DNA from: Fabrea salina | Taxonomy: Eukaryota > Ciliophora > Heterotrichea > Heterotrichida > Fabreidae | Assembly: GCA_022984795.1 (NCBI GenBank) | Contig: JALIHJ010000011.1 | Span: forward strand, 124,001 to 188,000 | Length of the DNA: 64,000 nt | Direction: 5' to 3' | Shown: positions 37,301-62,078 of the stretch, piece after piece | Layout of the letters: each line of letters begins with the position of its first letter | How positions within the stretch are numbered: position 1 is the first letter of the stretch | Made by a program: the position numbers and the translations under genes | The notes under the pieces: generated by a model | Seen by the model: only the letters and a program-made list of their open reading frames with translations | The model's database searches: none | What the model was told of the DNA's origin: nothing

Positions 37301-37312
37301 TTTTGGCGCCAA
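37301..37312 (+). promoter_or_regulatory. E2F-like site upstream of NASP
   Basis: TTTTGGCGCCAA is a perfect match to the E2F core TTTGGCGC and is palindromic. It ends 15 nt before the NASP ATG in an otherwise A+T-only leader. Confidence 0.65.
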
Positions 37313-37327
37313 CTTTATATTAATTTA

Positions 37328-38419
37328 ATGGAGACGGATAACCAAGCACAACAGCCCCAAACCGAGAAAGTGCCCACTTCTGTGGCCCCTGACCAGGAGA
37401 TCAAAGACACTTCTCCTGAAAAAGCTAACCAAAACGAATGGGAATTAAGCCAAAGTGCCCAGGAACTTATTAAAGAGGGAAAGTTGGACGAGGGAGTGGA
37501 AAAACTTGCCAAAGCTTTAGAGATCGCTACTAGTAAGTACGGAGAGCTTGCAGCAGAGGCTTACAAACTCTATTACGACTACGCAGATGCTCTTTTAGTT
37601 CAGTACGAGAACTCCCAAGACAACCTTTTTGGAGATGCTGTTCCTAAGGAAGTAGCTTATTCAGATGACGAAGAAGACCAAGAAGAGGACCAAGAAGACC
37701 AAGAAGAGGACCAAGAAGAAGACCAAGAAGAAGACCAAGAAGAAGGTGACCAAGAAGAAGACCAAGAAGAAGACCAAGAAGATCAAGAAAACGAAGCCAT
37801 GGACATTGAACAGAAAGAGGACATCAGCGACTTGCAAATAGTTTGGGAAACCCTAGAGTCATGCAGAGTCATTCTCACAACCAAAGTTTCAGACAACGAA
37901 TACTTGCTAAAAACTTACAGGCGTTTAGGAGACGTTTTGACCTGGCAAGAACAATTCGACAACGCCAACGAAGAGTACAAAAAGGCTCTAAACTTGCTTG
38001 ACTCACAAGAAGAAGCTCCTTCACGCAAAAAGGCAGAAATTTACTTCCTAATGGGAAACAACTTGCTTTCACAGCAAGGCAAAGAAGAATCTGCTGTGCA
38101 AGAATTTGTCCAAGCCCTTGAACAACTTAACCACGTGAAGAACCTTTGCGAGCCAGCAGAAGCCCAAGAAATAGAACAAGTTGTTCAGGAAATCCAAAAC
38201 AAAATTGAAGACGCCAGAGAACAACAACAAAGTTTAGAAACTATCAAGAACCAAGAACAAGAACAAGAAGCAGGGTTTAGTGAGTCCAAGTTAGAAGGAG
38301 AACCCCAAGACTTAGGCATTCTGGGCAAAAGGCAAAGAGAACACGCAGAAACCAACCCTGGAGAAGAACCCTCTGGACTTCCTGACTCCAACGAAACTAA
38401 AAAACTTAATGACAACTAA
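37328..38419 (+). CDS. NASP: NASP/Sim3/Hif1-type histone chaperone
   Basis: The 363-residue protein has the SHNi-TPR layout: a first TPR (~40-95, LSQSAQELIKEGKLDEGVEKL), a long acidic Asp-Glu-Gln insert (~113-155) where histones bind, then two or three TPRs from ISDLQIVWETLESCRVIL on. The C-terminus has a KR-containing stretch (ILGKRQREHAE) like the nuclear signal of NASP. NASP keeps soluble H3-H4 stable and passes it to deposition factors. The upstream E2F-like site fits S-phase expression. Confidence 0.9.
   Translation: METDNQAQQPQTEKVPTSVAPDQEIKDTSPEKANQNEWELSQSAQELIKEGKLDEGVEKLAKALEIATSKYGELAAEAYKLYYDYADALLVQYENSQDNLFGDAVPKEVAYSDDEEDQEEDQEDQEEDQEEDQEEDQEEGDQEEDQEEDQEDQENEAMDIEQKEDISDLQIVWETLESCRVILTTKVSDNEYLLKTYRRLGDVLTWQEQFDNANEEYKKALNLLDSQEEAPSRKKAEIYFLMGNNLLSQQGKEESAVQEFVQALEQLNHVKNLCEPAEAQEIEQVVQEIQNKIEDAREQQQSLETIKNQEQEQEAGFSESKLEGEPQDLGILGKRQREHAETNPGEEPSGLPDSNETKKLNDN
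37664..37792 (+). repeat. Asp-Gln-Glu coding tandem repeat in NASP
   Basis: About 130 bp of GAC-CAA-GAA-GAA units, imperfect 9-12 nt periods with one GGT interruption. It encodes the acidic histone-binding tract. Length variation between copies or assemblies is likely. Confidence 0.8.
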
Positions 38420-38435
38420 TTCAAATTCTTTATAA

Positions 38436-41186
38436 ATGGATTTCCAAGTAACTGAGGAGGAATTCAAAGAAATCGAAGCCCGTTTAGCTGCAGATTTAGA
38501 TAGTTTTGTTTCTGAACCTGAAGTAGAAGAACAAGAACCCCTTACACAACCTACTGTACTCGACAGTATTGTTGACACTGAGTTTTGGAAAAACTATATT
38601 AGGTGCTCTAAGGAAGTAGACCAACTCCACGAAGAAACTTTTACTGACTTCAGCGAAATAGTTGAAGGAGTCAGGGCAGCCACTAAAGAAACCTTTGTGG
38701 AAGTCCAAATCCCAGAACAGTCGGAGGAAAGTTTTGAAGGGTCAACTGAAAACTTTGAAATAACCAGTGAATGCCATCAAGAAAAGTACCAAAGTGACTA
38801 CTTAGAAGAACTCCAAAACTCCTTCCAAGAAGAAGATTTACAAGTCCTGCAGTTTTATGAAGTCCAACAAATGACTGAAGAAGACATGCTTGCTAGTATG
38901 CTTAGGAACTGGGAAAAAAAGCAGCAACAACTTGAAGTCCAAGAAAGAGCTCGCCAAAAACAACTCCGAGACATGGAGATTAAGCGTGAAGCCGCAGAAG
39001 CTGAACTTGAAAGACAAAAAAGAATTAAAAAGGAACAAGAACTTAGAACTAAACAACAAGAACAAGAGAAAAAACGCTTTGAAGCAATAGAAGCCCAAAG
39101 AACCCAACAAGAAACTTTAAGTATGCAGTGGGAAGACGAATTAGCATCTGCTCTTAGAAAGGAACTCATTAAAACCCAAGAAACCCAAAGAGCCCACTTA
39201 GAAACTAACCTTATGAGTATCGAAGACCAAAGTTCACACCAACTAAGGAAACTCAAACCTAGTTTTAAAAAGTTCTTTGTAGTTGACGAAACTTACCCCG
39301 AAATAGTGCCTGTTAAACAAAAACAGTCCAAGAAACTTGAATTCCCTGTACCTACTCTGCAAGCCACAGAAAAGCCCCAAAAGTGGTTTCAAGAAATTGA
39401 GTTGCCTAAACCCTTTTTGGTAGGTAAACTTCCCCCTTTCAAAAAAGAAGAAAACCTAGAAATGCCCACTTTGGGGGATTACTTGCCCTATCCCTTAGAC
39501 AAAGAAGCTAGGAGTTTTTCTTTGAAACTCGAAGACGTCGTATCTATTTCAGGCTTGCACCAGTTCAAGAACCTGCAGCACCTAAACCTTGCTTTGAACC
39601 AAATTAAATCTGTTCAAAACTTAACTCCTTCACTAGTCCATGTAGACCTGTCTAAAAACAAAATAACTCAAATTCCAGAGCTAAACCTTCCTTTGCTCGA
39701 AACCTTGATTCTAGACAACAACCAAATTCTCCAGATTTCAGGTCTCCAAAACTGTTTGAACCTTAGGAAACTCTCTATGAAAGGCAACAAACTCTCTGCT
39801 TTAGAAGGCTTGGAAAATAACACCCTTTTAGAAGAGCTTTCCTTGTACAGAAACGAAATTAAGTCAGTGGGTCCCTTTGCTTTCCAGAACAATACTTATT
39901 TGCAGCACTTGGACTTGGGAAGGAATCAGTTAAGAGAAGTTTACTTTTTAAGTCCCTTAAAACTCCTCAGAGTACTTATACTTTACGAAAACATGATTAG
40001 GGACACCCAGCCTCTGCACTTGCCTCTTTTAAAAGAACTTTGGCTGGACGGAAACTCTTTGAAAGAACTCAACTTCCTCAAAGACACCCCCCTTCTAGAA
40101 ATACTAAACGTCAAAAACAATGGAATCACTTCTATCTGCTCTTTTGAATGCTTCGTTCTGCAGACTTGTGACATTTCCTCCAACTTTTTGGGCTCCTTTA
40201 AAGAAATAGTTAAGTGCATAGAGTCTGCTCCTAACTTAAGTAACTTTTGCTACGAAAACAACCCTTTTCTTCTGGAAAACCCAGAACTTTTGGGACTTTA
40301 CAACGAAGTAACGGTCAAAGGCCTTCCTTGCATTAAAGAACTCAACAACACCCTGCGAACTTCTTTGCAGCCCTTTAAGCCTATACCTTCTGACTTACTT
40401 ACAAAGGCCTTTGAACTTAAGCAAATCGACATCTTCAAGATTTACCAAGAAAGACAAAGAACCATCTGTGACTATGCTAGCGAAGAATTTAAGGTAGCAC
40501 TTCAGCAACTACCAGCTAAGACTCATAACTCCCAAGTAGCTCAGGAGTTCCACAGAAGGGGAGTGCTTTTTCATTGGTACCAAACTAAAAAAACCCTTTA
40601 CTTAGCCACAAAAGCAGCTCTTAAAATCCAGTGCTGGTGGAAGTACTTGAGTCTTAAAAAAAGGATCCAAAACAAAACTTACCTAGAAAACATTTCTAAG
40701 ATTATAAAGATCCAAGCAGTTTACAAAGGCCACAGAGTAAGGAAAAGGCACTCCAAACCCAAAGAGTCTCAAGCAGTAAAGATTCAAGCTTTTTACAGAG
40801 GCTACAGACTCAGAAAGCGCATGAAAGATGTTTTGAGCAATGTAAGACAAATAGACCTGGACTTAGAAGAGTTCAAAGAAGTGAACCTAGACGACATTGA
40901 CACCAGCTTCGACTTTGACAGCGGACTTATTGTTCCTGAAGGCTTTGACTTTAATTACTTTGCGCAAGAAACCTTGCCTCCTATCAAAAAGCCCCAGCCC
41001 CAGCAAACTCCTTTTTCTGATGCTCAAAAACCTTCTGTAGAAACTTTGCCTCCAATTAACAAACCAAAGCCAGACCCCTTGGTAGCCAACCATAACAAGT
41101 TTAGGAAAAACTTTTCTTACAAAAAACCTAAACAACTCACAGCTGAAGAAAGACTTCAAAGGTTCAGAAAAGCTGCAAGGTACTAA
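38436..41186 (+). CDS. LRRIQ1: LRR and IQ protein, LRRIQ1-like
   Basis: The 916-residue protein has an acidic N-terminus and a charged coiled coil at ~150-250. About ten SDS22-type leucine-rich repeats follow (~365-600; LHQFKNLQHLNLALNQI, LVHVDLSKNKI, LETLILDNNQI), then an LRR cap. Three IQ motifs lie at ~725-800 (LKIQCWWKY, IKIQAVYKGHRVRKR, VKIQAFYRGYRLRKR) and the tail is Pro/Lys-rich. The order matches LRRIQ1, a ciliary-associated protein. The IQ motifs should bind calmodulin or a centrin. Confidence 0.82.
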   Translation: MDFQVTEEEFKEIEARLAADLDSFVSEPEVEEQEPLTQPTVLDSIVDTEFWKNYIRCSKEVDQLHEETFTDFSEIVEGVRAATKETFVEVQIPEQSEESFEGSTENFEITSECHQEKYQSDYLEELQNSFQEEDLQVLQFYEVQQMTEEDMLASMLRNWEKKQQQLEVQERARQKQLRDMEIKREAAEAELERQKRIKKEQELRTKQQEQEKKRFEAIEAQRTQQETLSMQWEDELASALRKELIKTQETQRAHLETNLMSIEDQSSHQLRKLKPSFKKFFVVDETYPEIVPVKQKQSKKLEFPVPTLQATEKPQKWFQEIELPKPFLVGKLPPFKKEENLEMPTLGDYLPYPLDKEARSFSLKLEDVVSISGLHQFKNLQHLNLALNQIKSVQNLTPSLVHVDLSKNKITQIPELNLPLLETLILDNNQILQISGLQNCLNLRKLSMKGNKLSALEGLENNTLLEELSLYRNEIKSVGPFAFQNNTYLQHLDLGRNQLREVYFLSPLKLLRVLILYENMIRDTQPLHLPLLKELWLDGNSLKELNFLKDTPLLEILNVKNNGITSICSFECFVLQTCDISSNFLGSFKEIVKCIESAPNLSNFCYENNPFLLENPELLGLYNEVTVKGLPCIKELNNTLRTSLQPFKPIPSDLLTKAFELKQIDIFKIYQERQRTICDYASEEFKVALQQLPAKTHNSQVAQEFHRRGVLFHWYQTKKTLYLATKAALKIQCWWKYLSLKKRIQNKTYLENISKIIKIQAVYKGHRVRKRHSKPKESQAVKIQAFYRGYRLRKRMKDVLSNVRQIDLDLEEFKEVNLDDIDTSFDFDSGLIVPEGFDFNYFAQETLPPIKKPQPQQTPFSDAQKPSVETLPPINKPKPDPLVANHNKFRKNFSYKKPKQLTAEERLQRFRKAARY

Positions 41187-41205
41187 GTGTTTATATAATG
41201 ATATT

Positions 41206-41691
41206 TTAGCTTAGTTTAGGCAGCACACAGTCTATAAAATGTTGTATGTTTTCTTTAAAGTGCAAAAGGCTAGCAGTTTCTTCGTTTGCTGGAAACCACT
41301 CTACTTGTTCCACTTCGTCCAGGTCCAAAATCTCACTTTCCTTTTCCACTTCTGCAATATAAAGTTTAACTGTTTTGTGGACAGTTCTTTCGTTAGAAGT
41401 TTTGTAGTAATAGTCTATAGGTTCAATCTGAACAGCCTGGTCGTAGTCATAAGTCCACTCAGAGTCTGCCCAAAACCTTAAGGGTCTGTGGCCAGTTTCT
41501 TCTAAAAGTTCCCTGATCGCTCCTTGAATTTCTGTTTCACCAGGGTCTTTGTGGCCCTTTGCTAAGTTGAAGTAGCCGTGCCTTCTGGATTTGCAAAGCA
41601 ACACTTCAAAGCACTCGTTTACTTTTCTGACTGGGACTACTCCGTAGCTTATGTCCTCCTTCATCATTTTTATTGCTCTTCTAAGCATCAT
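41206..41691 (-). CDS. Nudix hydrolase, Ap4A-hydrolase-like
   Basis: The 161-residue protein has the Nudix box GHKDPGETEIQGAIRELLEE followed by TG (GX5EX7RE..EE.G). SYGVVPVR at the N-terminus and YFNLAKGHKDPGE resemble NUDT2-type diadenosine tetraphosphatases, which cleave Ap4A to ATP and AMP. The substrate is inferred from similarity only. MLRRAIKMMK at the start could be an extension; Met9 or Met10 are alternative starts. Confidence 0.88.
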   Translation of the reverse strand: MMLRRAIKMMKEDISYGVVPVRKVNECFEVLLCKSRRHGYFNLAKGHKDPGETEIQGAIRELLEETGHRPLRFWADSEWTYDYDQAVQIEPIDYYYKTSNERTVHKTVKLYIAEVEKESEILDLDEVEQVEWFPANEETASLLHFKENIQHFIDCVLPKLS

Positions 41692-41699
41692 TTATTCTA

Positions 41700-42506
41700 T
41701 TATGAAATTAGCTTGTCAAAAAGTTCCGAAGCAGAGTTTTTGGTCTGGAAGTACTCGTGATTAGGGTCTAGACTGTAGAGTTCTTCCTCATAGCTTGAAG
41801 GGTCTTCTCCTTTTTGTCTTTTGCAAGCAACTAAGTTCTTGAGAGAAGTAGCAATGTCTTGCTTGATTCCAAAATCTCTGCTGAGTTCTAAAGCTCTTGT
41901 AAAAGCATGTTCTGCTTCAGCATAGTTACTGTCCTCCAGCGCACAGATTCCAATAGCATTCATCAAACTTACAGACTCTCCGAACTGCTGACTTAACTCT
42001 ATTAAGGTGGAGTAAGCTTCCTCGTAGTCCCCTTTGGCTATTTGGACAAAAGTTTGCACTATTTCAAGAAGGGGTTCGTCTTCGTGTTGAGACAAAGCAG
42101 ACTCCAAAAGTTGGGCTGCTGAGTCTGCTCTTTTAAAGTTGAGAAGTGCACACAGCAGAAGTGCTAAGTGTTCAGGTGAGTCAGGTTTAAGGTTGTCAAT
42201 GACTTGGGAGTAGTCTCCTTCGTTGATGTTGATAATTGAACTCAAGGTGGCGTTTAAGGAGTCTTGTTCCAAAGAGTCCTTTGCTGCTTGGGCAGAACTA
42301 GTCCCATTTAGATAAGAAAAAAGAGTCTTAAGGTTCTGGGTAGGCACATTTGGAACTTGGACTGACTTCAAACTCTGTCCCATTTGTATCAAAGATCTAA
42401 GTAAAAGTATTAGGACTCCTGGGTTGCTTTCTTTTTCCGGGGAAACTGTTTCTATGATTGCTTTGTAGTTGCCTGTGTAAAACTGGGCTTTGAGCTTTTC
42501 TTCCAT
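41700..42506 (-). CDS. COPE: Coatomer subunit epsilon
   Basis: The 268-residue all-helical TPR-like protein begins with FYTGNYKAIIE. Its later repeats (YSTLIELSQQFGES, LMNAIGICALEDSNYAEAEHAF, DIATSLKNLVACKRQKGE) and terminal ASELFDKLIS match the order and spacing of epsilon-COP, whose tail is ...ENDFDRLV. Epsilon-COP stabilises alpha-COP in the COPI coat. It is slightly shorter than the human protein (308). Confidence 0.82.
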   Translation of the reverse strand: MEEKLKAQFYTGNYKAIIETVSPEKESNPGVLILLLRSLIQMGQSLKSVQVPNVPTQNLKTLFSYLNGTSSAQAAKDSLEQDSLNATLSSIININEGDYSQVIDNLKPDSPEHLALLLCALLNFKRADSAAQLLESALSQHEDEPLLEIVQTFVQIAKGDYEEAYSTLIELSQQFGESVSLMNAIGICALEDSNYAEAEHAFTRALELSRDFGIKQDIATSLKNLVACKRQKGEDPSSYEEELYSLDPNHEYFQTKNSASELFDKLIS

Positions 42507-42512
42507 ATTTAG

Positions 42513-42923
42513 TTATTGATTAATTTCGGATCCGCACAAAACGCAAGCATAAGTGAGTTTGAATTTGCCCAGACAGCATAGTTTCTGCCACCCTTTAGGT
42601 TTGTTAAGTCTAGCCCAAATCACTTTTTTCTTGCAAACTCTGCAGAACCCTGAGGTGGGACTATCTTCTTCACAAAACTTATAGCTTTCGTTTAAGTCTG
42701 TTTCTGTAGCGTATGTAATAGGCATCTGGAAGTCCATTTCAAAGTACCTAGAAGAGTCTTTTTTGTGGCGGGACAAACAAGAAATGTCCATTCTGCTGCA
42801 CTCTTCTTCTTGGGGGAACTTGTCTTTAGCTTCAAGCAAAAGTTGTTCGTGGAAACTAACTCCTCCGGAAGAGTTAAACTGTCTGTACAGCCTTTTAGGC
42901 CTTTTGATGTTTAAAGTCATCAT
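42513..42923 (-). CDS. Small protein with C-terminal CxxC pair (zinc ribbon)
   Basis: The 136-residue protein has a basic N-terminus, an acidic middle, and a C-terminal ~45 residues with CRVCKKK and YACVLCGSE around a Trp/Leu-rich loop. Two CxxC pairs should bind one zinc. The layout weakly recalls LITAF-type modules but lacks the long hydrophobic insert. A G+C element resembling MCB/E2F lies 17-26 nt upstream. Function unknown. Confidence 0.7.
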   Translation of the reverse strand: MMTLNIKRPKRLYRQFNSSGGVSFHEQLLLEAKDKFPQEEECSRMDISCLSRHKKDSSRYFEMDFQMPITYATETDLNESYKFCEEDSPTSGFCRVCKKKVIWARLNKPKGWQKLCCLGKFKLTYACVLCGSEINQ

Positions 42924-42939
42924 TATTTAAATTTAAACT

Positions 42940-42949
42940 AACGCGCGTT
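42940..42949 (-). promoter_or_regulatory. Palindromic MCB/E2F-like element
   Basis: AACGCGCGTT, a 10-bp perfect palindrome in A+T-rich DNA, 16 nt from the ATG of the zinc-ribbon gene. It is similar in place to the boxes of PCNA, NASP and SMC4. Confidence 0.5.
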
Positions 42950-42954
42950 GTTTA

Positions 42955-43473
42955 TTATAGGAGAAAATAAGTTACTAAAAAGGCTATTGAGCTCCCTACT
43001 AAAGCGCCTACAATAGTGTCCGAGGGAAAGTGGCACATGTAATAAACTCTTGAAAACATAGTTCCCAGAGTCATTAAAAAACAAAACCACCAAGGGGCAC
43101 TTAAGTTCAGCGCTAAAAAAGTCCAAAAGGCTGCTGCTTGAGCAGAGTCTCCCGAAGGCATTGAGTGGTTAGTTTCCTTACCGCGGAAATCAAAACGAAG
43201 AGCTTCTACGCGTGGCAAGAAAGGAATGGGTCTAGGTCTGCTTACAAGCCTCTTCAAAATCAGTGTTGAAAACAAAGTAAGCACAGGAAGCAGCACGGCC
43301 GCTAAAAAGGAGTATAGTGACCAGGGCAGACCTATTATTGCTAAAGTCCAAATAAAACTAAGAATTTCGTTGTTAAAAGTTGCTGCGAGCACTGCCATCA
43401 AGTACTCTATAGGTCCCCAGGTTCGTATGGACTTGTGAACTATGTTGCACAAACTTTGGTCTAAGTAATGCAT
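42955..43473 (-). CDS. PAP2-superfamily membrane phosphatase with PSGD motif
   Basis: The 172-residue protein has five or six membrane helices. The three PAP2 motifs are present: K74-X6-RP (KRLVSRPRP), MPSGDSAQ (106-109) and SRVYYMCHFPSD with SR141, His148 and Asp152. The second motif has Asp109 where PSGH is usual. That His donates a proton to the leaving group, so activity may differ. The family removes phosphate from lipids such as phosphatidate or dolichyl/isoprenyl phosphates. Confidence 0.87.
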   Translation of the reverse strand: MHYLDQSLCNIVHKSIRTWGPIEYLMAVLAATFNNEILSFIWTLAIIGLPWSLYSFLAAVLLPVLTLFSTLILKRLVSRPRPIPFLPRVEALRFDFRGKETNHSMPSGDSAQAAAFWTFLALNLSAPWWFCFLMTLGTMFSRVYYMCHFPSDTIVGALVGSSIAFLVTYFLL

Positions 43474-43508
43474 TATTTAGTTAGTATTTTATAGGAATTA
43501 ACTAATTA

Positions 43509-44198: not shown

Positions 44199-44204
44199 TA
44201 AATT

Positions 44205-45212: not shown

Positions 45213-45218
45213 TTATAT

Positions 45219-46487: not shown

Positions 46488-46537
46488 TAATTATAGGAAC
46501 AGTTTTTACAGTGTTCATAACTCTGAGTTATCGAATT

Positions 46538-47776: not shown

Positions 47777-47791
47777 TATTATTACTTCATA

Positions 47792-48547: not shown

Positions 48548-48554
48548 TATAAAT
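48548..48554. promoter_or_regulatory. 7-bp divergent start spacer, TATAAAT
   Basis: The spacer between the two opposed ATGs (48545-48547 minus, 48555-48557 plus) reads TATAAAT, a TATA-like string. If it is a promoter it serves one gene at most from within a leader shorter than usual, so the true initiation points probably lie in the opposite coding region. Confidence 0.5.
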
Positions 48555-48842: not shown

Positions 48843-48843
48843 T

Positions 48844-51415: not shown

Positions 51416-51494
51416 ATCATAACTAAACTAAGCAAAAAGTAGTAAACTAACTAAGAATTCTTATCCAAGTTTGAATTCCATAGTTATAATTTAA

Positions 51495-53963
51495 ATGTCT
51501 CGTCTTAGAGCTAGATTTGAAACTCAGCTTAAACAAAAACTCCAGCAAAAATGCCCTTCTAAACTTTCAGAGGAGTCTTTTCTATACAAAGCCTTTAGAT
51601 TCATAGACCTTGACAACTCCAATACAGTTTCTAGAGATGAATGGATTCGCGCCATTGAAAAGATTGGCATAGTTGTGGAAGACCCCAAAGAACTCGAACT
51701 ACTTTTTGACGAATACGATTCTGACGGGTCCGGGGAAATAGACTACAGGGAGTTTGTTGCAGCCCTGTTTGGGGCTAACTCTGCCGTTGCAAAGCGCTTG
51801 ACTCCTCAAAAGTCCATGCCTCCTTCAGAAGAACAAAGAGCCGAAGACCTTTTAGAAGCCATAAAAGAACGCTTGCTAGCTCGTGGTGCCCGGGGCTTAA
51901 TTGGACTTTCCAGACAGTTCAAAATTATGGATGACGATTCTTCCGGAAAACTGGAATTCCAGGAGTTCTTGAAAGCACTCCACGACTACAGAGTGCCTAT
52001 TCCTGAAGAAGAAGCTGAACTCATTTTTGACTACATAGACAGGGACAGGTCTGGGTCCATTGACTACGATGAATTTGTAAGGGCAGTCCGCGGGCCTATG
52101 AATGCTTTCAGAAAAGAACTGGTTGCTGAGGCTTTCCACAGGTTAGACTTAGATAACTCAGGAGTCATTGACTTGTCAGACATTAAGCAAGTTTACGACC
52201 CAAGCAGCCATCCTGAAGTTCTTCAAGGAGTTAAGTCCGAAGAAGATGTGTTAAACGAGTTCCTAGAAACTTTTGAACTGCATCATTCTTTAAACGGGAG
52301 AAGAGACAGAAAAGTAACCTTTGAGGAATTTGAGGAGTACTACAACAACATTTCTGCAAGCATTGACAACGACAAGTACTTTGAAGTTATGATAGTAAAA
52401 GCTTGGGCTCTTGACAAGCAACCTCCCCAACCCCAGAAAAGCCCTTCAAAGGAACCAAAGCAAGTGGAAATTCGCAATCCCAGAAGTGTACAAGAAATCC
52501 TAGAGAAGTTTAGAGAAAAACTTGCTGCAAGAGGAGTTCGTGGCATTCTGGGCCTTGCTAGGCAGTTTAAGATTATGGATGATGACAACTCTAAGTTCAT
52601 TAACTACAACGAGTTTAGAAAAGCTTGCAGGGACTACCGGATTACTGTGGACGATAAAGAAATTCAACTTCTGTATGAAGCTATTGATATTGACGACAGC
52701 GGAGAAATCAACTACGATGAACTTTTAAGGGCAATCAGAGGGCCCCTGAACAGTTTCAGAAAAGGACTTGTTGACCAAGCTTGGAACAAACTTGACAAGG
52801 ACAGAAACGGAGTCTTAGACATTGACGATATCAGGGATGTCTACTCCGCAAAGCAGCACCCAGATGTTAGAGCCGGCAAAAGGACAGAGGACGACGTATT
52901 GGGCGAGTTCCTTGAAACTTTTGAAATGCACCATAACCTTAAAACACCCTCTGCTAGAGACCGCAGAGTAACCTACGAAGAGTTTTTAGAGTACTACAAC
53001 AATGTTTCAGCAAGCATAGACGATGACAGGTACTTTGAACTTATGATGACAAACGCCTGGAAACTCAGAGGAGAACCTCCAGTAAGGGAAAGTTGGGCAG
53101 GGGCTTATACAGTTTCCCACAAAACTTCATGGCTCGCCGATCACCACCGCAGTCAACTTGGAGGAACTGTAAACTCTTCTGCACCCTTTGGAACTTCTGA
53201 TGAACCTGTAGATTATACAACTTCAATGAGACCCCGCAGAGGGAACTTGGACTTACTAGAACTTTCTGGCTCGATTCCAGCTGCAGGAAGGTCAGTATGG
53301 TCCAAACCAGCAGCACAGCAGTCCCACTCTTCTTTCCAACAAGCTGAGGGATTGCTAGAAAGACTCAGAAACAAACTAGCAGCTAGGGGAGCAAAGGGCT
53401 TTATTGGGCTCAAAAGACAGTTCAAGATTATGGATGACAACGGAAACAACAAGCTAGACATAGGAGAGTTCATTAAAGGCATGAGGGACTTTAGAGTAGA
53501 AATATCAGAAGACGAAGCAGGGTTGTTGTTTAGGTACTTGGACGCTGACAGATCAGGCTCAATAGATTACGAAGAGTTTTTGCACAGACTCCAAGGGCCT
53601 ATGAACCCACGCAGAAAACAAGTAGTTGAAAAGGTTTTTCAAAAACTAGACAAAACTGGGGACGGTTACATAATGGTTGACGACTTAAGAGGAGTTTACA
53701 ACGTTTCACTGCACCCAGACGTGCGGATGGGCAAAAAATCAGAAGACGAAGTTCTGTGTGACTTTTTGGATACCTTTGAAGTCCACCACGCTATGTTTAA
53801 AGGGGGACGCCGGGACGCAAAGGTTACGCTAGACGAGTTTATGGAGTATTACCAACACGTTTCAGCTTCTATCACAGACGATAGGTACTTTGACTTGATG
53901 ATGAAAAATGCCTGGAACCTAGACAACGTTTCTTACGGAAAGGGTTGGAGGGGCGAGTGCTAA
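51495..53963 (+). CDS. Triple calcyphosine-like EF-hand protein
   Basis: The 822-residue protein has an N-terminal EF-hand pair (~30-92). Three tandem copies of a ~190-residue calcyphosine (CAPS/CAPSL) unit follow, at ~115-304, ~331-525 and ~613-806. Each copy starts with LxARGxRGxxGLxRQFKIMDD and ends with YYxxxSASIxDDxYFxxMxxxAW. Each unit has four EF-hand positions, some without ideal Ca ligands. Calcyphosine-like proteins occur in cilia, so an axonemal calcium sensor or doublet-binding role is likely but inferred. Confidence 0.9.
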   Translation: MSRLRARFETQLKQKLQQKCPSKLSEESFLYKAFRFIDLDNSNTVSRDEWIRAIEKIGIVVEDPKELELLFDEYDSDGSGEIDYREFVAALFGANSAVAKRLTPQKSMPPSEEQRAEDLLEAIKERLLARGARGLIGLSRQFKIMDDDSSGKLEFQEFLKALHDYRVPIPEEEAELIFDYIDRDRSGSIDYDEFVRAVRGPMNAFRKELVAEAFHRLDLDNSGVIDLSDIKQVYDPSSHPEVLQGVKSEEDVLNEFLETFELHHSLNGRRDRKVTFEEFEEYYNNISASIDNDKYFEVMIVKAWALDKQPPQPQKSPSKEPKQVEIRNPRSVQEILEKFREKLAARGVRGILGLARQFKIMDDDNSKFINYNEFRKACRDYRITVDDKEIQLLYEAIDIDDSGEINYDELLRAIRGPLNSFRKGLVDQAWNKLDKDRNGVLDIDDIRDVYSAKQHPDVRAGKRTEDDVLGEFLETFEMHHNLKTPSARDRRVTYEEFLEYYNNVSASIDDDRYFELMMTNAWKLRGEPPVRESWAGAYTVSHKTSWLADHHRSQLGGTVNSSAPFGTSDEPVDYTTSMRPRRGNLDLLELSGSIPAAGRSVWSKPAAQQSHSSFQQAEGLLERLRNKLAARGAKGFIGLKRQFKIMDDNGNNKLDIGEFIKGMRDFRVEISEDEAGLLFRYLDADRSGSIDYEEFLHRLQGPMNPRRKQVVEKVFQKLDKTGDGYIMVDDLRGVYNVSLHPDVRMGKKSEDEVLCDFLDTFEVHHAMFKGGRRDAKVTLDEFMEYYQHVSASITDDRYFDLMMKNAWNLDNVSYGKGWRGEC

Positions 53964-53978
53964 GTTAACTATTAATAT

Positions 53979-54293: not shown

Positions 54294-54297
54294 ATAC

Positions 54298-55182: not shown

Positions 55183-55225
55183 TTTGATATACTTCGCTAA
55201 AAGTTAAATAGTTAGAATATTTCAA

Positions 55226-55865: not shown

Positions 55866-55895
55866 AAGCTTCAGTTCTTTCTTTGAATAGTGTAT

Positions 55896-56738
55896 TTAAT
55901 TAACAAGGTACTTGTCTTCAAAAAGCAAGGGTTCGTTACAAGACTCTATTCTTACTCTTATAGGGTACAAGTGCCCGTCAGCACTTGGTTTTCCTAAAGG
56001 CAGTAGCCATAGCTTTTTGTTTTCTCCAAAAACCTGAGAAAGGTTCTTTACGACGTTCTTTGTGTCAAAAACGTTGAACTCTTCCCCCATTTCTAAGTTA
56101 GTGAAGTTCTTCAAAATCATCCAGAGGTGCATAACTCCAAAACCAGTTAAACTAAAAAAAAACACAAACCCTAGTCCAGCACCCAGTATTGAAAAAACTG
56201 AATAGTGCGAGTCCTCCAACACAAACAACAAGCACAGCACTCCCATAACTAGCCCACCTACTCCATAGTAAAGTAAAAATAACACAAAAGCTTTGTGGTT
56301 CAGCAACCCAACACAGTTTGCAATCCATGGGCAATGGTGATCGTACCTTAAAATGCACCTTTCGCAATGCGAGCAGTGGTGTGCACGTGTAGGTCTGTAT
56401 CTGCTGCACTTGCTGCAAAAGTTCAGTTTGGCTCTTTCAAAGTCATCTTCGTTCATTCCAGGACAATAGTGTTCAAGTCTGTCGTCAGGAATGTACAATG
56501 GGTCCAAACTTCTTTTAGGAGTTCCTGGGTCTCTGAAAACTGAAACCAAGTAGCTCCACATTCCCAAAAGCAAAACAGAAAACAGAATTACTGTTCCGAT
56601 AACATCTACTGGAGCAAAATCCTTTTCAAGCAGGTACCCTTTAAAGAACACAAAGAGTGCAAAGCCCTTCAACCCCAACACACAAGACATCGGAAGTACA
56701 GATAAAACCCTGTAGTACTTCTTGGGGTGGTAAATCAT
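55896..56738 (-). CDS. DHHC palmitoyltransferase
   Basis: A 280-residue protein with four membrane helices. The Cys-rich domain at ~105-155 reads NFCSKCSRYRPTRAHHCSHC, then the DHHC core with PWIANCVGLLNHKAF. The C-terminus has a TTxE-like segment (GEEFNVFDTKNVV). It is closest in layout to ZDHHC15/PFA3-type enzymes. It is the third DHHC gene in the window. Confidence 0.92.
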   Translation of the reverse strand: MIYHPKKYYRVLSVLPMSCVLGLKGFALFVFFKGYLLEKDFAPVDVIGTVILFSVLLLGMWSYLVSVFRDPGTPKRSLDPLYIPDDRLEHYCPGMNEDDFERAKLNFCSKCSRYRPTRAHHCSHCERCILRYDHHCPWIANCVGLLNHKAFVLFLLYYGVGGLVMGVLCLLFVLEDSHYSVFSILGAGLGFVFFFSLTGFGVMHLWMILKNFTNLEMGEEFNVFDTKNVVKNLSQVFGENKKLWLLPLGKPSADGHLYPIRVRIESCNEPLLFEDKYLVN

Positions 56739-56771
56739 AATTATAAATATTAGGTCTCAGGATTAAGTCGA

Positions 56772-56927
56772 TTACTTAGGTTTTGGGGTAGCTAGTATGC
56801 ATACCCAGTTCTGAGTTTCCAAAGAGTTGACTCGTCCAGTGTAGTACTTCATTGGAATGAAGTAGCTGCCCAGTGCCAGTCCCAAAACCGCAAACTGGAT
56901 TTCCCATCTCATCTTAACCAGCCTCAT
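56772..56927 (-). CDS. Very small single-pass membrane protein
   Basis: The likely start is the ATG at 56927, giving 51 residues (MRLVKMRWEIQ...). A hydrophobic helix spans ~9-25, followed by KYYTGRVNSLETQNW. Codon use matches its neighbours and the frame is closed by A+T-rich DNA. Small subunits of mitochondrial or ER complexes look like this, but I cannot name one. The ATG is only 6 bp from that of the divergent 2H gene. Confidence 0.5.
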   Translation of the reverse strand: MRLVKMRWEIQFAVLGLALGSYFIPMKYYTGRVNSLETQNWVCILATPKPK

Positions 56928-56933
56928 TTTATT
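56928..56933. promoter_or_regulatory. 6-bp space between divergent start codons
   Basis: TTTATT separates the minus-strand ATG (56925-56927) from the plus-strand ATG (56934). Met5 of the plus gene (56946) would lengthen the gap to 18 bp. Confidence 0.4.
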
Positions 56934-57563
56934 ATGGCAATCATTATGCCGAAGAAACGACCTACACACTTTTTGAGTTTGCCACTGTACTCAAATGCTA
57001 CTTTAAAGGAGTTCCAAACACACATTTCCAACTTTCCAATTCCTGGACTCAAACTCCACAACTTCACTAAGCCAGAAACATTCCACATTACCCTAGGAGT
57101 GCTTTATCTGCCCAACTTAGATTACTTGTTTTCAGCCAGCATGGCTCTTCAGAACTTCAAACTCAAATTTTCCTCGCCTTTCAACCTTCTGCTGAAGTTT
57201 TCGGGACTAGAAGTGTTTGGAGAACCCCAAAGTGCTAGAGTGCTTAAACTCGGACTCCAAAACACAGAATCAAAGTTTATGCTAGAGTCCTTCCATGCAG
57301 AGTTAATGCACGAACTTGTAAAAAGCGGTGCTTGCACCTACAGAGACTTAGCTTCTCAAAGAGTTAACTTTTGCCCTTTTGAATTCAGTTACCATCTTAC
57401 ACTTGCCAAAACCAAGTTTAACAAAAGGTTCGATGCGACCTGGATCCTGGAAAACTACGAGGATGTTCAGTTGGGCTGCTTTGAAGTAAATAGAATACAA
57501 CTTTGCAGAATGGACAGGAAAAGAAGCAAGCACTACCCTGTTGAGTATGAAGTATTTATTTAA
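56934..57563 (+). CDS. 2H phosphoesterase, AKAP7/ASCC1-like
   Basis: The 209-residue protein has the two H-x-T motifs of the 2H superfamily: FHITLGVL (His51) and SYHLTLAK (His154). THFLSLPL at the start and a final Arg/Lys-rich strand fit the AKAP7 nuclear-ligand-domain type. Relatives hydrolyse 2',5'-oligoadenylates or cyclic phosphates, or bind nucleotides; the substrate here is unknown. There is no KH domain, unlike ASCC1. Confidence 0.85.
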   Translation: MAIIMPKKRPTHFLSLPLYSNATLKEFQTHISNFPIPGLKLHNFTKPETFHITLGVLYLPNLDYLFSASMALQNFKLKFSSPFNLLLKFSGLEVFGEPQSARVLKLGLQNTESKFMLESFHAELMHELVKSGACTYRDLASQRVNFCPFEFSYHLTLAKTKFNKRFDATWILENYEDVQLGCFEVNRIQLCRMDRKRSKHYPVEYEVFI

Positions 57564-57574
57564 TAATTCAAATC

Positions 57575-58432
57575 ATGGGATCTTCTTGTAGCTGCAAATC
57601 TACATGCGGAGGCAAAGAACTAATTCTACTAGAAAGTGAGTTTACCGTAGGAGAGAAGCAACCAGTAAACGTTATTTAGACTCAGCCCTCTAATAGTCTA
57701 TTGTTAGGAAAAGCCAAAAAGGAAGAGCAGTGGATTCTTTCTAACTTCCAACTACACAATACAAACACTTCTTCTGTATTTTTCCAGAACAAAAAGCCCA
57801 GATCCAGAGTAGATTCTATTTCTTCACCTTTTATGTCTCAAAGAGAACCTCGGCTTTTTGAAAAGAGTCTTCAGTTCTCTCCTATTCGCGAAAAGCACAC
57901 AGAGTCTTTTAGAGAAAACACCCTGTTTGAAGGCGAGTTAGCTAAGTACAGACCTGGGTTTAGTCAGCAGTACATTGAAAGGTGGTGTGAGTTAACTACT
58001 GAAGCTTTTCTGTACTACAAAAATGAGTGGTATGCTAAGTGCTGGCCTGAAAAACCCTTTGCCAAGATTCCTTTGATCCAAATAGCAGAAATCTCTAAAA
58101 AAGTCTTTCCAACTACCCTGCCCCCGCCTTACCAAAACCAGTCACAATTTGAACTTATTTTGTACGGAGAGGACGATTTAACAGCCTTGTCAAGGTCTTC
58201 TGAGGGCTTTTCTCAGTGCAACATAAGTAGGAGTTCTTTTATGGATAGAAAAACCGGCGAGGGACTAGTTATGACTGACAAAAAACTTCCTAGGTCTATG
58301 TGGAGTATCCGTGAGCTTGAGTGGTACACAGCAGAAAAAAGACTTCTATTTGCTGCTAGGGACGACTGCACTCGGGATGTCTGGGTTAGGAAGATTCTGA
58401 ATGCCAAAAGCTTGCATCAGAGTTTATTTTAA
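57575..58432 (+). CDS. PH-domain protein with N-terminal lipidation motif; one 15-nt intron
   Basis: The ATG at 57575 gives MGSSCSCKSTCGG. Gly2 and nearby Cys are a strong N-myristoylation plus palmitoylation signal. An intron at 57665-57679 removes an in-frame TAG and connects to the long frame, for ~280 residues. A PH domain at ~95-275 (YIERWCELTTEAFLYYKNEW, then a long insert, then LLFAARDDCTRDVWVRKI) should bind phosphoinositide or another membrane ligand. The protein is predicted to be membrane-anchored at two points. Confidence 0.87.
57665..57679 (+). other. 15-nt intron
   Basis: GTAAACGTTATTTAG, A at position 10, phase 0. It adds a lipidated N-terminus to the PH protein. Confidence 0.9.
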
Positions 58433-58457
58433 GTATAAATATTGCATTGTTTAAAGG

Positions 58458-59294
58458 ATGTTTTTGGTTTTTGTGTTAACTAGCCTGCCTTTGATGCTTT
58501 GTCAAGAACAGCCTACCCCAGTAAAGCCTATGGCTTTGCTAATAGACCCCTCTCCTAGAACAGAAACTTCTCCCGGAATCCTGGACAATCCACCCTGTAG
58601 CGGGGCTGCAAAGGACCTTGCACACACCCTAGCCCAACCTGGAGACTTGCACCCTGTTATGTGGCGTGTTTTCCACCCTTCAGAGTCTTCTAACTGCAGC
58701 ATTAGACTAGCTCCTACTTCGGACTTTTCAAAGTTCGTAACTTTAAGTCCACTAGACAGAATTTCAGACTCAGGGGGCTGGTTTCCCTGCGGCAGAGAAG
58801 AAACTAGTGCTGAAAGAGTAACTATTCAGTTTCCAGAGAGGTGGGTTTGCTCTGAATGCACTTTGCAGTGGGTGTGGAAAACCTTCCAAGGGGCTTTTTA
58901 TCAATGTTCAGATGTAAGAGTCTTTATGAAAGAAGCAAGTTGCAAAGGCATGTGCCAAAACGGAGGCAAGTGTATAGAAGGAGTTTGTGTTTGTTCAAAG
59001 GGGTTTTATGGGGACTTTTGCGAACTAAGTGAAAAAGAAGAAGAAGAATTCAGTGCTATAGGGTACTTTGTGACTTTTGTGGTGTTTTGCTTAACTTGTT
59101 CTTGTTTAGCTTCGGCAGTGTACTTCTATCTCAACCAAAACAAACTACCAGGCCCAATTTACAAGTTTTTAGAAGAAAACTGTGCGTGGTGCATCAGAAG
59201 AGAAAGAATTTTGTCTAACCAACCTTCAAGGGAAGAGTCCAAGGAACAAGTTTCTGAATCAGGGAAGTCGTCTTCGAGTTCCGAAAAAGGTTAG
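58458..59294 (+). CDS. Secretory EGF-like single-pass membrane protein
   Basis: The 278-residue protein has a signal peptide (~1-15) and a Cys-rich ectodomain (~40-160) with GGWFPCGRE, CSECTLQWVWKTF and FYQCSDVRVF. One EGF module (C162-C188, CQNGGKCIEGVCVC), a membrane helix (~200-224) and a Ser/Glu-rich tail follow. The ectodomain pattern recalls the cellulose/chitin-active LPMO-like fold, but the copper-binding N-terminal His is absent, so activity is not expected on this evidence. It is likely a surface adhesion or receptor protein. Confidence 0.78.
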   Translation: MFLVFVLTSLPLMLCQEQPTPVKPMALLIDPSPRTETSPGILDNPPCSGAAKDLAHTLAQPGDLHPVMWRVFHPSESSNCSIRLAPTSDFSKFVTLSPLDRISDSGGWFPCGREETSAERVTIQFPERWVCSECTLQWVWKTFQGAFYQCSDVRVFMKEASCKGMCQNGGKCIEGVCVCSKGFYGDFCELSEKEEEEFSAIGYFVTFVVFCLTCSCLASAVYFYLNQNKLPGPIYKFLEENCAWCIRRERILSNQPSREESKEQVSESGKSSSSSEKG

Positions 59295-59320
59295 TTAAAG
59301 TTCAAATTTTAAATTTAAAA

Positions 59321-59629
59321 ATGAGCAAAGGTAGCATTGACTACTCAGAAAAGTACTGCGATGATGAGTTTGAGTACAGATTGGTAATTCTGCCAAGGGA
59401 GTGGGGACAAGTCGTCAAAGAAAAAGGACTTTTGAGTGAAGACGAGTGGCGCAAGCTTGGAATTTCCCAAAGTAAAGGTTGGGTGCACTACAGTTCTCAC
59501 AGTCCTGAACCCCACATTCTTCTGTTTAGAAGACCTTTAGGAACCGACCCTAGAACTGGAATTGTTGACACCAAAGCCAAGGCTACCATTAAACGGGAAG
59601 CTGAACAAAGAAGACGCATTGTTAAATAA
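59321..59629 (+). CDS. CKS1: Cyclin-dependent kinase regulatory subunit CKS1
   Basis: The 102-residue protein matches p13suc1/CKS throughout: YSEKYCDDEFEYRLVILP, EWRKLGISQSKGWVHY and PEPHILLFRRPLGTDP. The HxPEPH hinge for domain swapping is present (HSPEPH). CKS binds Cdk1 and helps multisite phosphorylation. The C-terminus is longer than human CKS1 (79 residues) by ~25 basic residues. No E2F-like box is seen upstream. Confidence 0.97.
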   Translation: MSKGSIDYSEKYCDDEFEYRLVILPREWGQVVKEKGLLSEDEWRKLGISQSKGWVHYSSHSPEPHILLFRRPLGTDPRTGIVDTKAKATIKREAEQRRRIVK

Positions 59630-59655
59630 GAATTCCGTTAGATTGGTAACTGAGA

Positions 59656-60663
59656 TTACTGCTTATTAAAGTAAGGGTATACCACTTGGTGGTAAGTGTT
59701 CAAGTCGGGTCCGTAATCCAGCATAGTTCCAGCTTCGCCTTGCCAAAATTCGCCTACTTCACTTCCTCCTCCGAAAACAAAGAAGTTCTTTCTAGATCTA
59801 AGTATGATAGGTCTGGCTCTGGGAATGCACAAAGCTGTTTGGGTGTTTTCTTGGGTTTCTCCTGTTTCAGAGTTGAACTTTAGGATTCTAGGGAACACGT
59901 TTTCTCCGTTGCTGCCTCCAACCAGCCAAACTTCAGTGCCTTGGAGGTCTCTAACAACTACTCCCATTCCTGCGTACATCGGAAAGTCCACTTTGACTTC
60001 TTCCCAAGTCATTGTCTGGGGATTTAGTTTCTCGATTCCTTGGGCGTTGCTTTGGAATCCGTCGAAGCCTCCTGCTACAAATATAAAGTTAGAGGTGGCA
60101 AAGGCACTGAAGCAAGACCTAGACTTGTTCATACCAGGCAGAACTTCCCAGCCTCCTTCTGTAAGTCTTTCACATGAACTCAAGTAAGTTTCTTTGTCGA
60201 GTTGGCCCCCCATCACGTAAATCGTGCCCTGGAAGACTAGTGAGCAGTGCATGTACCGCCTTTCTTGCAAGTTTTGCAGTTTGCGGACTTTCTCTTCGTA
60301 ATTGTTTTCGTAGCCTAGTTGCATAGAGATCTCTTGGACTTTGTTGAGGGCATTGGTTCCGTCGAAGCCCCCTGACACAACAAATGTATTGTTGCCTTTG
60401 AAAACTACAGAGCTGTACTTCTCTGCTTCAAAGTCTATGTCTTTAGTAATGCGGGAGTACTTAGTCCACAGCTGAGTTCCAGAGTCAAAGGTATGCAGAC
60501 AGCCTCCTGCTAAGATATTGATGCTTTCTAATTGTCCATTGCACTGGTCTGCATATCTTAAGTGTTTGTTTTCGTCTGAACCTGGAATCAGCTCTACATT
60601 TGGCTCTACTGAAGGGTCTGCTGAAGGCGTAAATTCATTAGCTTCCGCTCTGAGGTTTTCCAT
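59656..60663 (-). CDS. Kelch-repeat protein
   Basis: The 335 residues contain five or six kelch blades (~45-330) with GG pairs followed by spaced Tyr and Trp (VSGGFDGTNALNKV, YVMGGQLDKETYLSSCE, FVAGGFDGFQSNAQG, WLVGGSNGENV, FVFGGGSE). No BTB or F-box is attached. Kelch propellers are protein-interaction scaffolds. The partner is unknown. Confidence 0.9.
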   Translation of the reverse strand: MENLRAEANEFTPSADPSVEPNVELIPGSDENKHLRYADQCNGQLESINILAGGCLHTFDSGTQLWTKYSRITKDIDFEAEKYSSVVFKGNNTFVVSGGFDGTNALNKVQEISMQLGYENNYEEKVRKLQNLQERRYMHCSLVFQGTIYVMGGQLDKETYLSSCERLTEGGWEVLPGMNKSRSCFSAFATSNFIFVAGGFDGFQSNAQGIEKLNPQTMTWEEVKVDFPMYAGMGVVVRDLQGTEVWLVGGSNGENVFPRILKFNSETGETQENTQTALCIPRARPIILRSRKNFFVFGGGSEVGEFWQGEAGTMLDYGPDLNTYHQVVYPYFNKQ

Positions 60664-60691
60664 TTATACAGTCTATTTAAGCGAATGTTAA

Positions 60692-61459
60692 TTACTCGGG
60701 AATCTTAGGAGCTAAGAAGTAACTCACTTCTCCGAGTTCAAACTTGTACTGAATTTTAATAGGAATATCTTGGGACATCCAAATGCAGACTTGGTCGCTT
60801 AAAGAAGAACACCTATTTATCAGGGTTAGGTACTTGACACTAAAAGCCATTTCTAAGTCGTGATTAGTTTTCACTAACACCCTTTCGGTGAATTTTTCAG
60901 AGTCTACAGGCATCAAAACAGTTTCTCCAGCTGCCATTTCGTCAATTAACTCAAACTTGACAGAACCCTTTTTAACGTAAATCTTTAGAGTGTCAGTAAT
61001 AGGTTGGAGGTCTCTGCATATCTTATGGAACTCGTAACTGGGAAACTCCATGTGTGCCGTGTACTCTGTTTCAGGAATTCCCAGACTATCGTGGTCCAGC
61101 ACCCTAAGGTTCATGTTCAGCTCAATAGTTTTAGTTCCTTTGTTGTCCCAAAACACTATTGTCATGGCTTCAGCTTCTTCACTGGCCTTGAGAGTCAACT
61201 TGTCTTGGTCCTTGCCTATTTTGAGGAACTTTGAGAAACTTTCCAAGGAAACTCCTAGTTTGAATGGAGAATCGCAAGCGTACTCGTCAAAGTTTTGGGC
61301 GGGAAGGTGAAGAACCAAAAAAGCCAAATGTCCTTTGTCCATAGTTCTGATCGAAAGTCCTTCTGAGGTGCACTCTAGGTTAGCTTCTGGAATTAGACCT
61401 TTGATGCTTTCAATTAATTTCTTGAATGTGCTGCTTGAGTCCAAATGTGCTTCAAACAT
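60692..61459 (-). CDS. PCNA: PCNA sliding clamp
   Basis: The 255-residue protein has the PCNA start (MFEAHLDSSSTFKKLIESIK), DKGHLAFLVL, the interdomain connector region and the end LGEVSYFLAPKIPE. Length is close to the usual ~260. It forms the homotrimeric clamp for replicative polymerases and PIP-box partners. A perfect E2F-type site lies 14 nt upstream of the ATG, fitting S-phase expression. Confidence 0.97.
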   Translation of the reverse strand: MFEAHLDSSSTFKKLIESIKGLIPEANLECTSEGLSIRTMDKGHLAFLVLHLPAQNFDEYACDSPFKLGVSLESFSKFLKIGKDQDKLTLKASEEAEAMTIVFWDNKGTKTIELNMNLRVLDHDSLGIPETEYTAHMEFPSYEFHKICRDLQPITDTLKIYVKKGSVKFELIDEMAAGETVLMPVDSEKFTERVLVKTNHDLEMAFSVKYLTLINRCSSLSDQVCIWMSQDIPIKIQYKFELGEVSYFLAPKIPE

Positions 61460-61473
61460 TTATTTGTATTTCA

Positions 61474-61486
61474 TTTTCCCGCCAAA
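61474..61486 (-). promoter_or_regulatory. E2F-type site upstream of PCNA
   Basis: In the gene's orientation the site reads TTTGGCGGGAAAA, a full match to the E2F/DP consensus. It ends 14 nt before the ATG. PCNA is a classic E2F target in animals and plants. Confidence 0.72.
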
Positions 61487-61727
61487 TAACTAAAGCACCT
61501 TCTATAAGGAATTACTGAGTGTTTTAATATAAATAACCTGTGCTGGCATTCGTAGTTCTCATTCAACACCTGAGAGTAGCCATTGCAGGAAAAGTATCTG
61601 TGTCACCTGGGACACAACTCAGAACTAGTTAGAGATGAAACTTAAGAGATCAAGAGTTCTGACAAGTCCAAAGGTTCAAAGTGAAGAATGAATCCTTAGG
61701 GCAAAGTGGTTAATGAAATATAATTAA
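61487..61727. other. Longest gene-free stretch, with a perfect short hairpin
   Basis: These ~240 bp lie between the PCNA promoter and the small gene at 61728. They are less A+T-rich than other spacers and include a 6-bp perfect stem with a 6-nt loop at 61599-61616 (TGTGTC / GACACA). They could hold a small structured RNA gene. I find no tRNA, 5S, U1, U2, U4, U5 or U6 signature and cannot assign one. Confidence 0.35.
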
Positions 61728-62033
61728 ATGCAGTCGTCAGAAAATTACTACCCTTACGTTCTGCCTCAAATCACTGATACCGAGGACCACTACTCTGAAT
61801 TGAGAGACTCTTTCAATTCCGCACCCCTAACCCAACCCCCTGAAATAGTGATTGGGAATTTGTATAGCACAAGACCTACTATCATCAATGCCAACCCCAA
61901 CTGCAGGCAGTGTGAAGGAGTAGGGTTCAATAGACTTGGAAGGCCTTGCATTCTGTGCAATCCGGAGTCTTCTTGTCGAAGGAAGCACAAAGTTCCTCGC
62001 AGAGTCGCCAAGCATGGTTGTTGTATATTCTAA
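61728..62033 (+). CDS. Small Cys-rich protein ending in a CaaX-like box
   Basis: The 101-residue protein has an acidic N-terminus. A zinc-ribbon-like stretch follows (NCRQCEGVGFNRLGRPCILC, two CxxC pairs, 12 residues apart), then a basic region and the terminal sequence GCCIF. CCIF fits a CaaX prenylation box with Phe at the end, which favours geranylgeranylation, next to a polybasic stretch as in membrane-targeted GTPases. No family is recognised. Confidence 0.65.
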   Translation: MQSSENYYPYVLPQITDTEDHYSELRDSFNSAPLTQPPEIVIGNLYSTRPTIINANPNCRQCEGVGFNRLGRPCILCNPESSCRRKHKVPRRVAKHGCCIF

Positions 62034-62070
62034 ACTGTACAGACTTTGATTAAGTTTAAATTTAACAAAA

Positions 62071-62078
62071 AACGCGCC
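62071..62078 (+). promoter_or_regulatory. MCB/E2F-like box upstream of SMC4
   Basis: AACGCGCC contains ACGCG and GCGCC half sites. It lies 12 nt before the SMC4 ATG in an A+T-only leader. It is a weaker match than the PCNA and NASP sites. Confidence 0.45.

What the first reader, a model, noticed from the sequence alone, without database searches (positions are those of the whole stretch)
37301..62078. A G+C box (E2F/MCB-like) 12-16 nt before the ATG of S-phase genes
Seen: TTTGGCGGGAAAA before PCNA, TTTTGGCGCCAA before NASP and AACGCGCC before SMC4, each ending 12-15 nt from the ATG inside leaders that are otherwise A+T only. Known: E2F/DP controls PCNA and other replication genes in animals and plants. 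Inference: this genome keeps an E2F-type S-phase program on promoters shortened to tens of bases, with the site held at nearly fixed distance from the start codon. Other spacers in the window lack such boxes.
Basis: partly seen in the sequence, partly recalled or inferred. Interest (0 to 1): 0.7.

Follow-up and report, generated by a model that had tools for sequence, protein, structure and literature searches.

The report
E2F switch sites abutting replication genes
In this very compact genome, probably a ciliate's, short DNA boxes of the kind read by the cell-cycle switch E2F sit within about 25 bases of the start of several DNA-replication genes and of two Rb-type genes, so a known control circuit seems to run on tiny promoters.

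Summary
The three boxes are real, 12-15 nt before the ATG of NASP, PCNA and SMC4, and these are the only 3 of 58 window gene leaders that match the E2F consensus TTTSSCGC at 7 or more of 8 positions. The pattern extends beyond the window: of 22 replication/chromosome genes fetched by protein family, 7 have such a box within 60 nt of the ATG, against 4 of 147 other leaders (p=6e-5); reversed and core-swapped consensuses show nothing. Positive: five of six MCM2-7 genes, DNA polymerase alpha, RNR2. Negative: MCM3, RNR1, three RFC genes, two other B-family polymerases, three polymerase B subunits, five other SMC genes. The genome has 8 E2F/DP matches and 4 Rb matches, and a motif-only search led to two Rb promoters. 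A nearly fixed distance fails: the boxes end 0-24 nt from the ATG in 13 genes. Exact 8-of-8 matches are not enriched, and the one-mismatch rule was set after the MCM leaders had been seen. Binding and expression are untested. Ciliate E2F targets with this consensus are published for Stentor and Tetrahymena, so this is a new member of a known kind.

The parts
37301..37312 (+). E2F-type box TTTTGGCGCCAA, 15 nt before the NASP ATG
   Evidence: 8 of 8 to TTTSSCGC; TTTGGCGCCAA occurs in 12 rows in the genome against 0 for the reversed pattern, though several of those copies are coding
37328..38419 (+). NASP-like histone chaperone gene (SHNi-TPR)
   Evidence: PF10516 24.4 bits, cut-off 21
61474..61486 (-). 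E2F-type box TTTGGCGGGAAAA, 14 nt before the PCNA ATG
   Evidence: 8 of 8
60692..61459 (-). PCNA gene
   Evidence: TIGR00590 8.8e-72, PCNA_N 6.4e-34
62071..62078 (+). box AACGCGCC, 12 nt before the SMC4 ATG
   Evidence: 7 of 8
62091..64000 (+). SMC4 gene, runs past the window end
   Evidence: best PDB relative SMC4 3.1e-90
42941..42948 (.). weaker palindromic ACGCGCGT, 17 nt before the ATG at 42923(-) of an uncharacterised 136-aa gene; doubtful member
   Evidence: 6 of 8; no Pfam hit for the gene

Best explanation
The boxes are E2F/DP binding sites in the minimal promoters of a subset of replication and chromosome genes. An E2F-DP dimer binds the box beside the start codon; Rb-type pocket proteins on E2F hold the gene off, and their release before S phase lets it fire. 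Two of the Rb-type genes carry boxes themselves, which would give feedback. Shown here: the boxes, their enrichment and position, and the E2F, DP and Rb genes. Inferred: binding, repression and release, S-phase timing, feedback.
For: 7 of 22 replication/chromosome genes against 4 of 147 others have a TTTSSCGC match of 7 or more of 8 within 60 nt (p=5.8e-5); MCM2-7 5 of 6 (p=1.1e-6); shuffled leaders predict 0.8 and 4.4. Reversed (1 of 22, 8 of 147) and CG-to-GC (2 of 22, 11 of 147) controls are flat. In the 22 genes 7 of 10 boxes found in 200 nt lie in the 50 nt next to the ATG; in 143 background genes the counts per 50 nt are 4, 5, 4, 7. In the window only PCNA, NASP and SMC4 of 58 leaders qualify. 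Eight E2F/DP matches, RRxYD in 8 of 8, DP domain over cut-off in three; four Rb matches. The motif-only search led to two Rb-type promoters.
Against: 15 of 22 replication/chromosome genes lack a near box. Exact 8-of-8 matches: 1 of 22 against 1 of 147, p=0.24. Looser regular expressions tried first on 18 genes gave weaker results: 4 of 18 against 10, 4 and 5 of 148, p=0.049, 0.005 and 0.009. The one-mismatch rule was set after the MCM leaders had been seen. About 19 of 28 strong genome sites are coding. CKS, a cell-cycle gene in the window, has no box. No binding or expression data.
Confidence: 0.75

Rival explanations
1. Chance G+C words in A+T-rich leaders, picked out by a reader who knew the E2F story.
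For: Raw window counts are at chance; most strong genome sites are coding; exact 8-of-8 matches are not enriched.
Against: Enrichment in genes chosen by protein family, p=5.8e-5, with flat controls; shuffled leaders predict 0.8 where 7 were found; a motif-only search led to two Rb promoters.
Confidence: 0.07
2. The boxes are sites of another cell-cycle factor, such as an MCB/APSES-type or Myb/MuvB complex, not of E2F-DP.
For: The SMC4 box contains ACGCG, the MCB word (recalled). An R2R3-Myb gene lies just upstream of NASP. In Tetrahymena a MuvB subunit binds a hybrid E2F-type motif (PMC8216455, passages).
Against: Most boxes have the E2F form with T and A flanks, and E2F, DP and Rb genes are present. 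APSES factors were not searched for; that they are fungal is recalled.
Confidence: 0.08
3. The boxes act in the mRNA leader (translation or stability), since several touch the ATG.
For: Box ends 0-4 nt from the ATG in MCM4, MCM6, MCM7, pol alpha and the H1-like gene.
Against: The boxes occur in both orientations or as palindromes (forward at PCNA, MCM6, MCM7; reverse at MCM5 and the RCC1 gene; palindrome at NASP), as expected of a DNA site; they match the E2F consensus.
Confidence: 0.07

Closest known systems
Predicted E2F targets of Stentor coeruleus (PMC9371601; passages read)
   Same: A heterotrich ciliate; same expression TTT[GC][GC]CGC searched in non-coding DNA; E2F gene knocked down with a phenotype.
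   Different: There 13 predicted targets are listed among regeneration genes, in no single functional family; the words 'DNA replication' and 'PCNA' do not occur in the main text. Here the boxes sit on replication genes and within about 25 nt of the ATG.
Tetrahymena E2F/DP, Rb-like and MuvB system (PMC8216455; passages read)
   Same: [quoted passage not shown] genes up in the dpl2 mutant enriched in DNA replication and repair.
   Different: Hybrid E2F-CHR element and MuvB binding shown there by ChIP; not tested here. Sites there are scored within 1 kb of the transcription start, here within 60 nt of the ATG.
Animal and plant E2F-DP-Rb control of PCNA, MCM, RNR2, pol alpha and Rb-family genes (recalled; not read here)
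   Same: Same consensus, same core target classes, Rb-family genes among targets.
   Different: Much longer promoters; here RNR1, RFC and MCM3 lack a near box.

Membership tests
E2F/DP-Rb controlled S-phase promoters | E2F and DP factors with the RRxYD DNA-contact motif in the genome | tested here: met
   8 PF02319 matches over cut-off; RRxYD in 8 of 8; DP domain over cut-off in L011, L013, L016
E2F/DP-Rb controlled S-phase promoters | Rb-type pocket protein | tested here: met
   4 PF01858 matches over cut-off; L029 matches RBL1/p107 in PDB at 1.7e-16
E2F/DP-Rb controlled S-phase promoters | Consensus sites enriched at replication-gene starts | tested here: met
   7 of 22 against 4 of 147 at 7 of 8 positions, p=5.8e-5; not at exact 8 of 8 (p=0.24)
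   0,0,0,2,4,6,9,14,15,18,18,20,24 nt in 13 genes; two further motif-selected promoters at 3 and 49 nt
E2F/DP-Rb controlled S-phase promoters | Rb-binding tail in E2F | tested here: inconclusive
   Both E2F-like proteins end in EG(I/L)ADLFSY, which resembles the Rb-binding tail of E2F1 as recalled; no binding test
E2F/DP-Rb controlled S-phase promoters | Factor occupancy and periodic expression of targets | not testable with these tools
   no expression or binding data on hand
DREAM/MuvB hybrid promoters | E2F site next to a CHR element; LIN54 and LIN9 genes | not tested
MBF/SBF (MCB box) | APSES DNA-binding factor in the genome | not tested
   no search left; only the word ACGCG at SMC4 fits

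The most novel reading that the evidence does not exclude
The E2F box is itself the core promoter: E2F-DP sits on or just over the transcription start, sets where transcription begins and gives near-leaderless mRNAs, so that one site of about 10 bp carries both start selection and cell-cycle control, with Rb acting by blocking the start.
Probability: 0.15. Interest if true: 0.65.

Novelty: new member of a known kind. Interest (0 to 1): 0.43.

Why it matters
It suggests that an E2F-DP-Rb circuit, with Rb genes among the likely targets, can be squeezed into promoters of tens of bases. Because the boxed promoters are so short, the regulon can be read nearly directly from sequence, and one can ask whether E2F can act at the transcription start itself.

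Tried and rejected
Raw window pattern counts show no excess; without position relative to the ATG the motif says nothing. A fixed spacing of 12-16 nt was rejected. Generality was rejected: MCM3, RNR1, three RFC, two B-family polymerases, three B subunits and five SMC genes have no box in 60 nt. Four motif definitions were tried: three regular expressions (18 genes) and TTTSSCGC with one mismatch (22 genes); the last is the one reported as main result, and its mismatch rule was set after the MCM leaders had been seen.

Strong genome sites as proof were rejected: of 28 distinct places of TTTSGCGSSAAA about 19 lie in reading frames. Of the 42 rows of TTGGCGSSAAN{0,25}ATG I fetched 10 new places: 7 lie in reading frames, and in the other 3 (L071, L073, L077) no long frame starts at that ATG. 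L019, L034 and L035 are intergenic but not close to the start of a long frame.

Rows left out of the 22: two further MCM-domain genes (L046, L047) and the weak hits L048 and L069, none with a box by the expressions; the second halves of SMC genes (L054, L057-L061); one SMC-type hit on C84 that was not fetched; SMC4 as a window gene. The E2F/DP genes were kept apart; among them only L016 has a 7-of-8 match in 60 nt. Background: frames of 100 aa or more with a known start, without SMC4 and without 21 genes near motif-selected sites; introns were ignored in gene calling. Of the four Rb-type genes the C35 promoter was not read.

Prior work was looked for. The Fabrea genome paper (PMC9004412) is not held; only its title was seen, in reference lists.

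Full report
WHAT WAS CLAIMED.

OBSERVATION. The boxes are at 37301-37312 (NASP, 15 nt to the ATG), 61486-61474 on the minus strand (PCNA, 14 nt) and 62071-62078 (SMC4, 12 nt). PCNA (TIGR00590, 8.8e-72) and SMC4 (best PDB relative, 3e-90) are secure; NASP rests on SHNi-TPR, 24.4 bits against a cut-off of 21. Over the whole window the patterns are no commoner than chance (6 against 7.3; 19 against 14.2). Relative to start codons they stand out: of 58 called genes with a 60-nt leader only these three reach 7 of 8 positions of TTTSSCGC with its CG intact. All 59 called window genes were scanned with Pfam; I saw no other core replication gene by name, but 21 or so have no Pfam hit, and a CKS cell-cycle gene (59321-59629) has no box. 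A weaker ACGCGCGT precedes the 136-aa gene at 42513-42923.

ORGANISM. The genome has 18.33 Mb in 103 contigs. Two E2F genes are each interrupted by one 15-nt GT-AG intron at the same place. Introns of 15-16 nt are typical of heterotrich ciliates (recalled). The size fits Fabrea salina (size recalled), whose macronuclear genome is called extremely streamlined in a title seen. The species is not proven.

TEST BEYOND THE WINDOW. Replication and chromosome genes were fetched by protein family, without regard to motif: MCM, SMC, RFC, B-family polymerases, RNR large and small chains, polymerase B subunits. Without the window genes this gave 22 genes. Within 60 nt of the ATG 7 of 22 have a consensus match of 7 or more of 8, against 4 of 147 other leaders (p=5.8e-5); for MCM2-7 it is 5 of 6 (p=1.1e-6). 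Letter-shuffled leaders predict 0.8 and 4.4. The reversed consensus (1 of 22, 8 of 147) and a CG-to-GC version (2 of 22, 11 of 147) show nothing. Exact matches are not enriched (1 of 22, 1 of 147, p=0.24). Three regular expressions tried first on 18 genes gave 4 of 18 each, against 10, 4 and 5 of 148 (p=0.049, 0.005, 0.009), with SMC4 still in the background. Of the four background hits, one shares the MCM5 box as its divergent neighbour and one lies in the coding start of a B-family polymerase; the others precede a kinesin and IFT20.

THE POSITIVES. MCM6 TTTGGCGGGA|ATG; MCM7 TTGGCGGGAATAATA|ATG; MCM2 TTGGCGCG, with a GGCGCA at the ATG; MCM4 TTTCGCGGTAAA|ATG; MCM5 TTCCCGC; pol alpha AAAGCGGGAAA|ATG; RNR2 TTTTTGCGCGC. 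MCM names come from PDB matches, pol alpha from its p180 N-terminal domain, RNR2 from PF00268 at 3.7e-111. Negatives in 60 nt: MCM3, two other B-family polymerases, three B subunits, RNR1, three RFC genes, five SMC genes.

MOTIF-ONLY DIRECTION. TTTSGCGSSAAA gives 37 rows (28 distinct places) against 10 rows for the reversed pattern. All 28 places were read: about 19 lie in reading frames, nine between genes. Six of the nine lie within about 100 nt upstream of the ATG of a long frame: PCNA; an Rb-type gene (L029, RB_A 7.5e-31); a second Rb-type gene on C70; a basic KTPxPAKK-rich protein resembling linker histone H1 (L023, no Pfam hit); an RCC1-repeat protein; a B-box/kelch protein. On C70 two consensus boxes lie 18 and about 90 nt before an ATG that is in frame with the RB_A match 987 nt on; the bases between were not read. 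Of four Rb-type genes three promoters were read, two have near boxes, and the third has none within 60 nt (one match at 188 nt). The DP gene L016 starts TTAGGCGGGAA|ATG. TTGGCGSSAA within 25 nt before an ATG gives 42 rows against 8, but 7 of the 10 new places that I read lie in reading frames.

DISTANCE. Nearest box ends in 13 genes (7 of the 22, three window genes, two Rb-type genes, the H1-like gene): 0,0,0,2,4,6,9,14,15,18,18,20,24 nt; the kelch and RCC1 genes add 3 and 49. This is a zone of about 25 nt, not a fixed spacing. In the 22 genes 7 of 10 boxes in 200 nt fall next to the ATG; in 143 background genes they are flat (4, 5, 4, 7 per 50 nt).

FACTORS. Eight E2F/DP matches, RRxYD in 8 of 8; three have a DP domain over cut-off and two more below it. 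Two are E2F-like and end in EG(I/L)ADLFSY, which resembles the Rb-binding tail of E2F1 as recalled. Four Rb matches.

MECHANISM. E2F-DP bound at promoters of tens of bases, held off by Rb and released before S phase, with Rb genes as targets. Sites and factors are shown; binding, timing and feedback are inferred. Boxes in both orientations speak for a DNA site. Boxes touching the ATG imply very short leaders or binding over the transcription start, which is the bold reading.

KNOWN OR NEW. E2F and this consensus are already assigned to ciliates: Stentor (E2F knock-down, predicted targets in regeneration; passages) and Tetrahymena (714 genes quoted, MuvB binding; passages). This is a well-supported new instance, distinctive for its compactness and for boxed Rb genes. 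The listings of searches showed no title reporting it for a compact heterotrich genome; the library is partial, and the Fabrea paper could not be read.

Noticed in passing
window 36304-37254 (+): An R2R3-type Myb gene (two PF00249 stretches) ends 73 nt before the NASP ATG; Myb factors partner MuvB in animals (recalled), so the pairing may or may not mean something.
   Followed up: partly
window 59321-59629 (+): A CKS gene (cyclin-dependent kinase regulatory subunit, 5.2e-33) without any E2F-type box in its leader, close to PCNA.
   Followed up: partly
L039, around 1497-1570: A B-box/kelch gene with three E2F-type matches within 60 nt of its ATG (at 3, 30 and 51 nt), the densest cluster seen; nothing in Pfam explains why it should be an S-phase gene.
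   Followed up: partly
L034, around 1481-1530: A strong TTTGGCGGGAAA site lies in a perfect inverted repeat with 15-nt arms (GATATTAGCATTTCC and its complement) between genes.
   Followed up: no
G000 C20, C30, C45, C62; and C19, C47, C67: The same 20-base match TTGGCGGGAATAGGATCATG occurs on four contigs and TTGGCGGGAAGAGTCATG on three; the C20 copy is in a reading frame, so these look like repeated coding families.
   Followed up: partly
window 20667-22727 (-): RCC1 repeats and a protein kinase domain in one reading frame.
   Followed up: no
window 51495-53963 (+): A protein with at least six EF-hand pairs in three similar blocks.
   Followed up: no
window 32408, 50834, 54312: Candidate 15-16-nt GT-AG introns whose removal would lengthen neighbouring frames; unproven without RNA.
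   Followed up: partly
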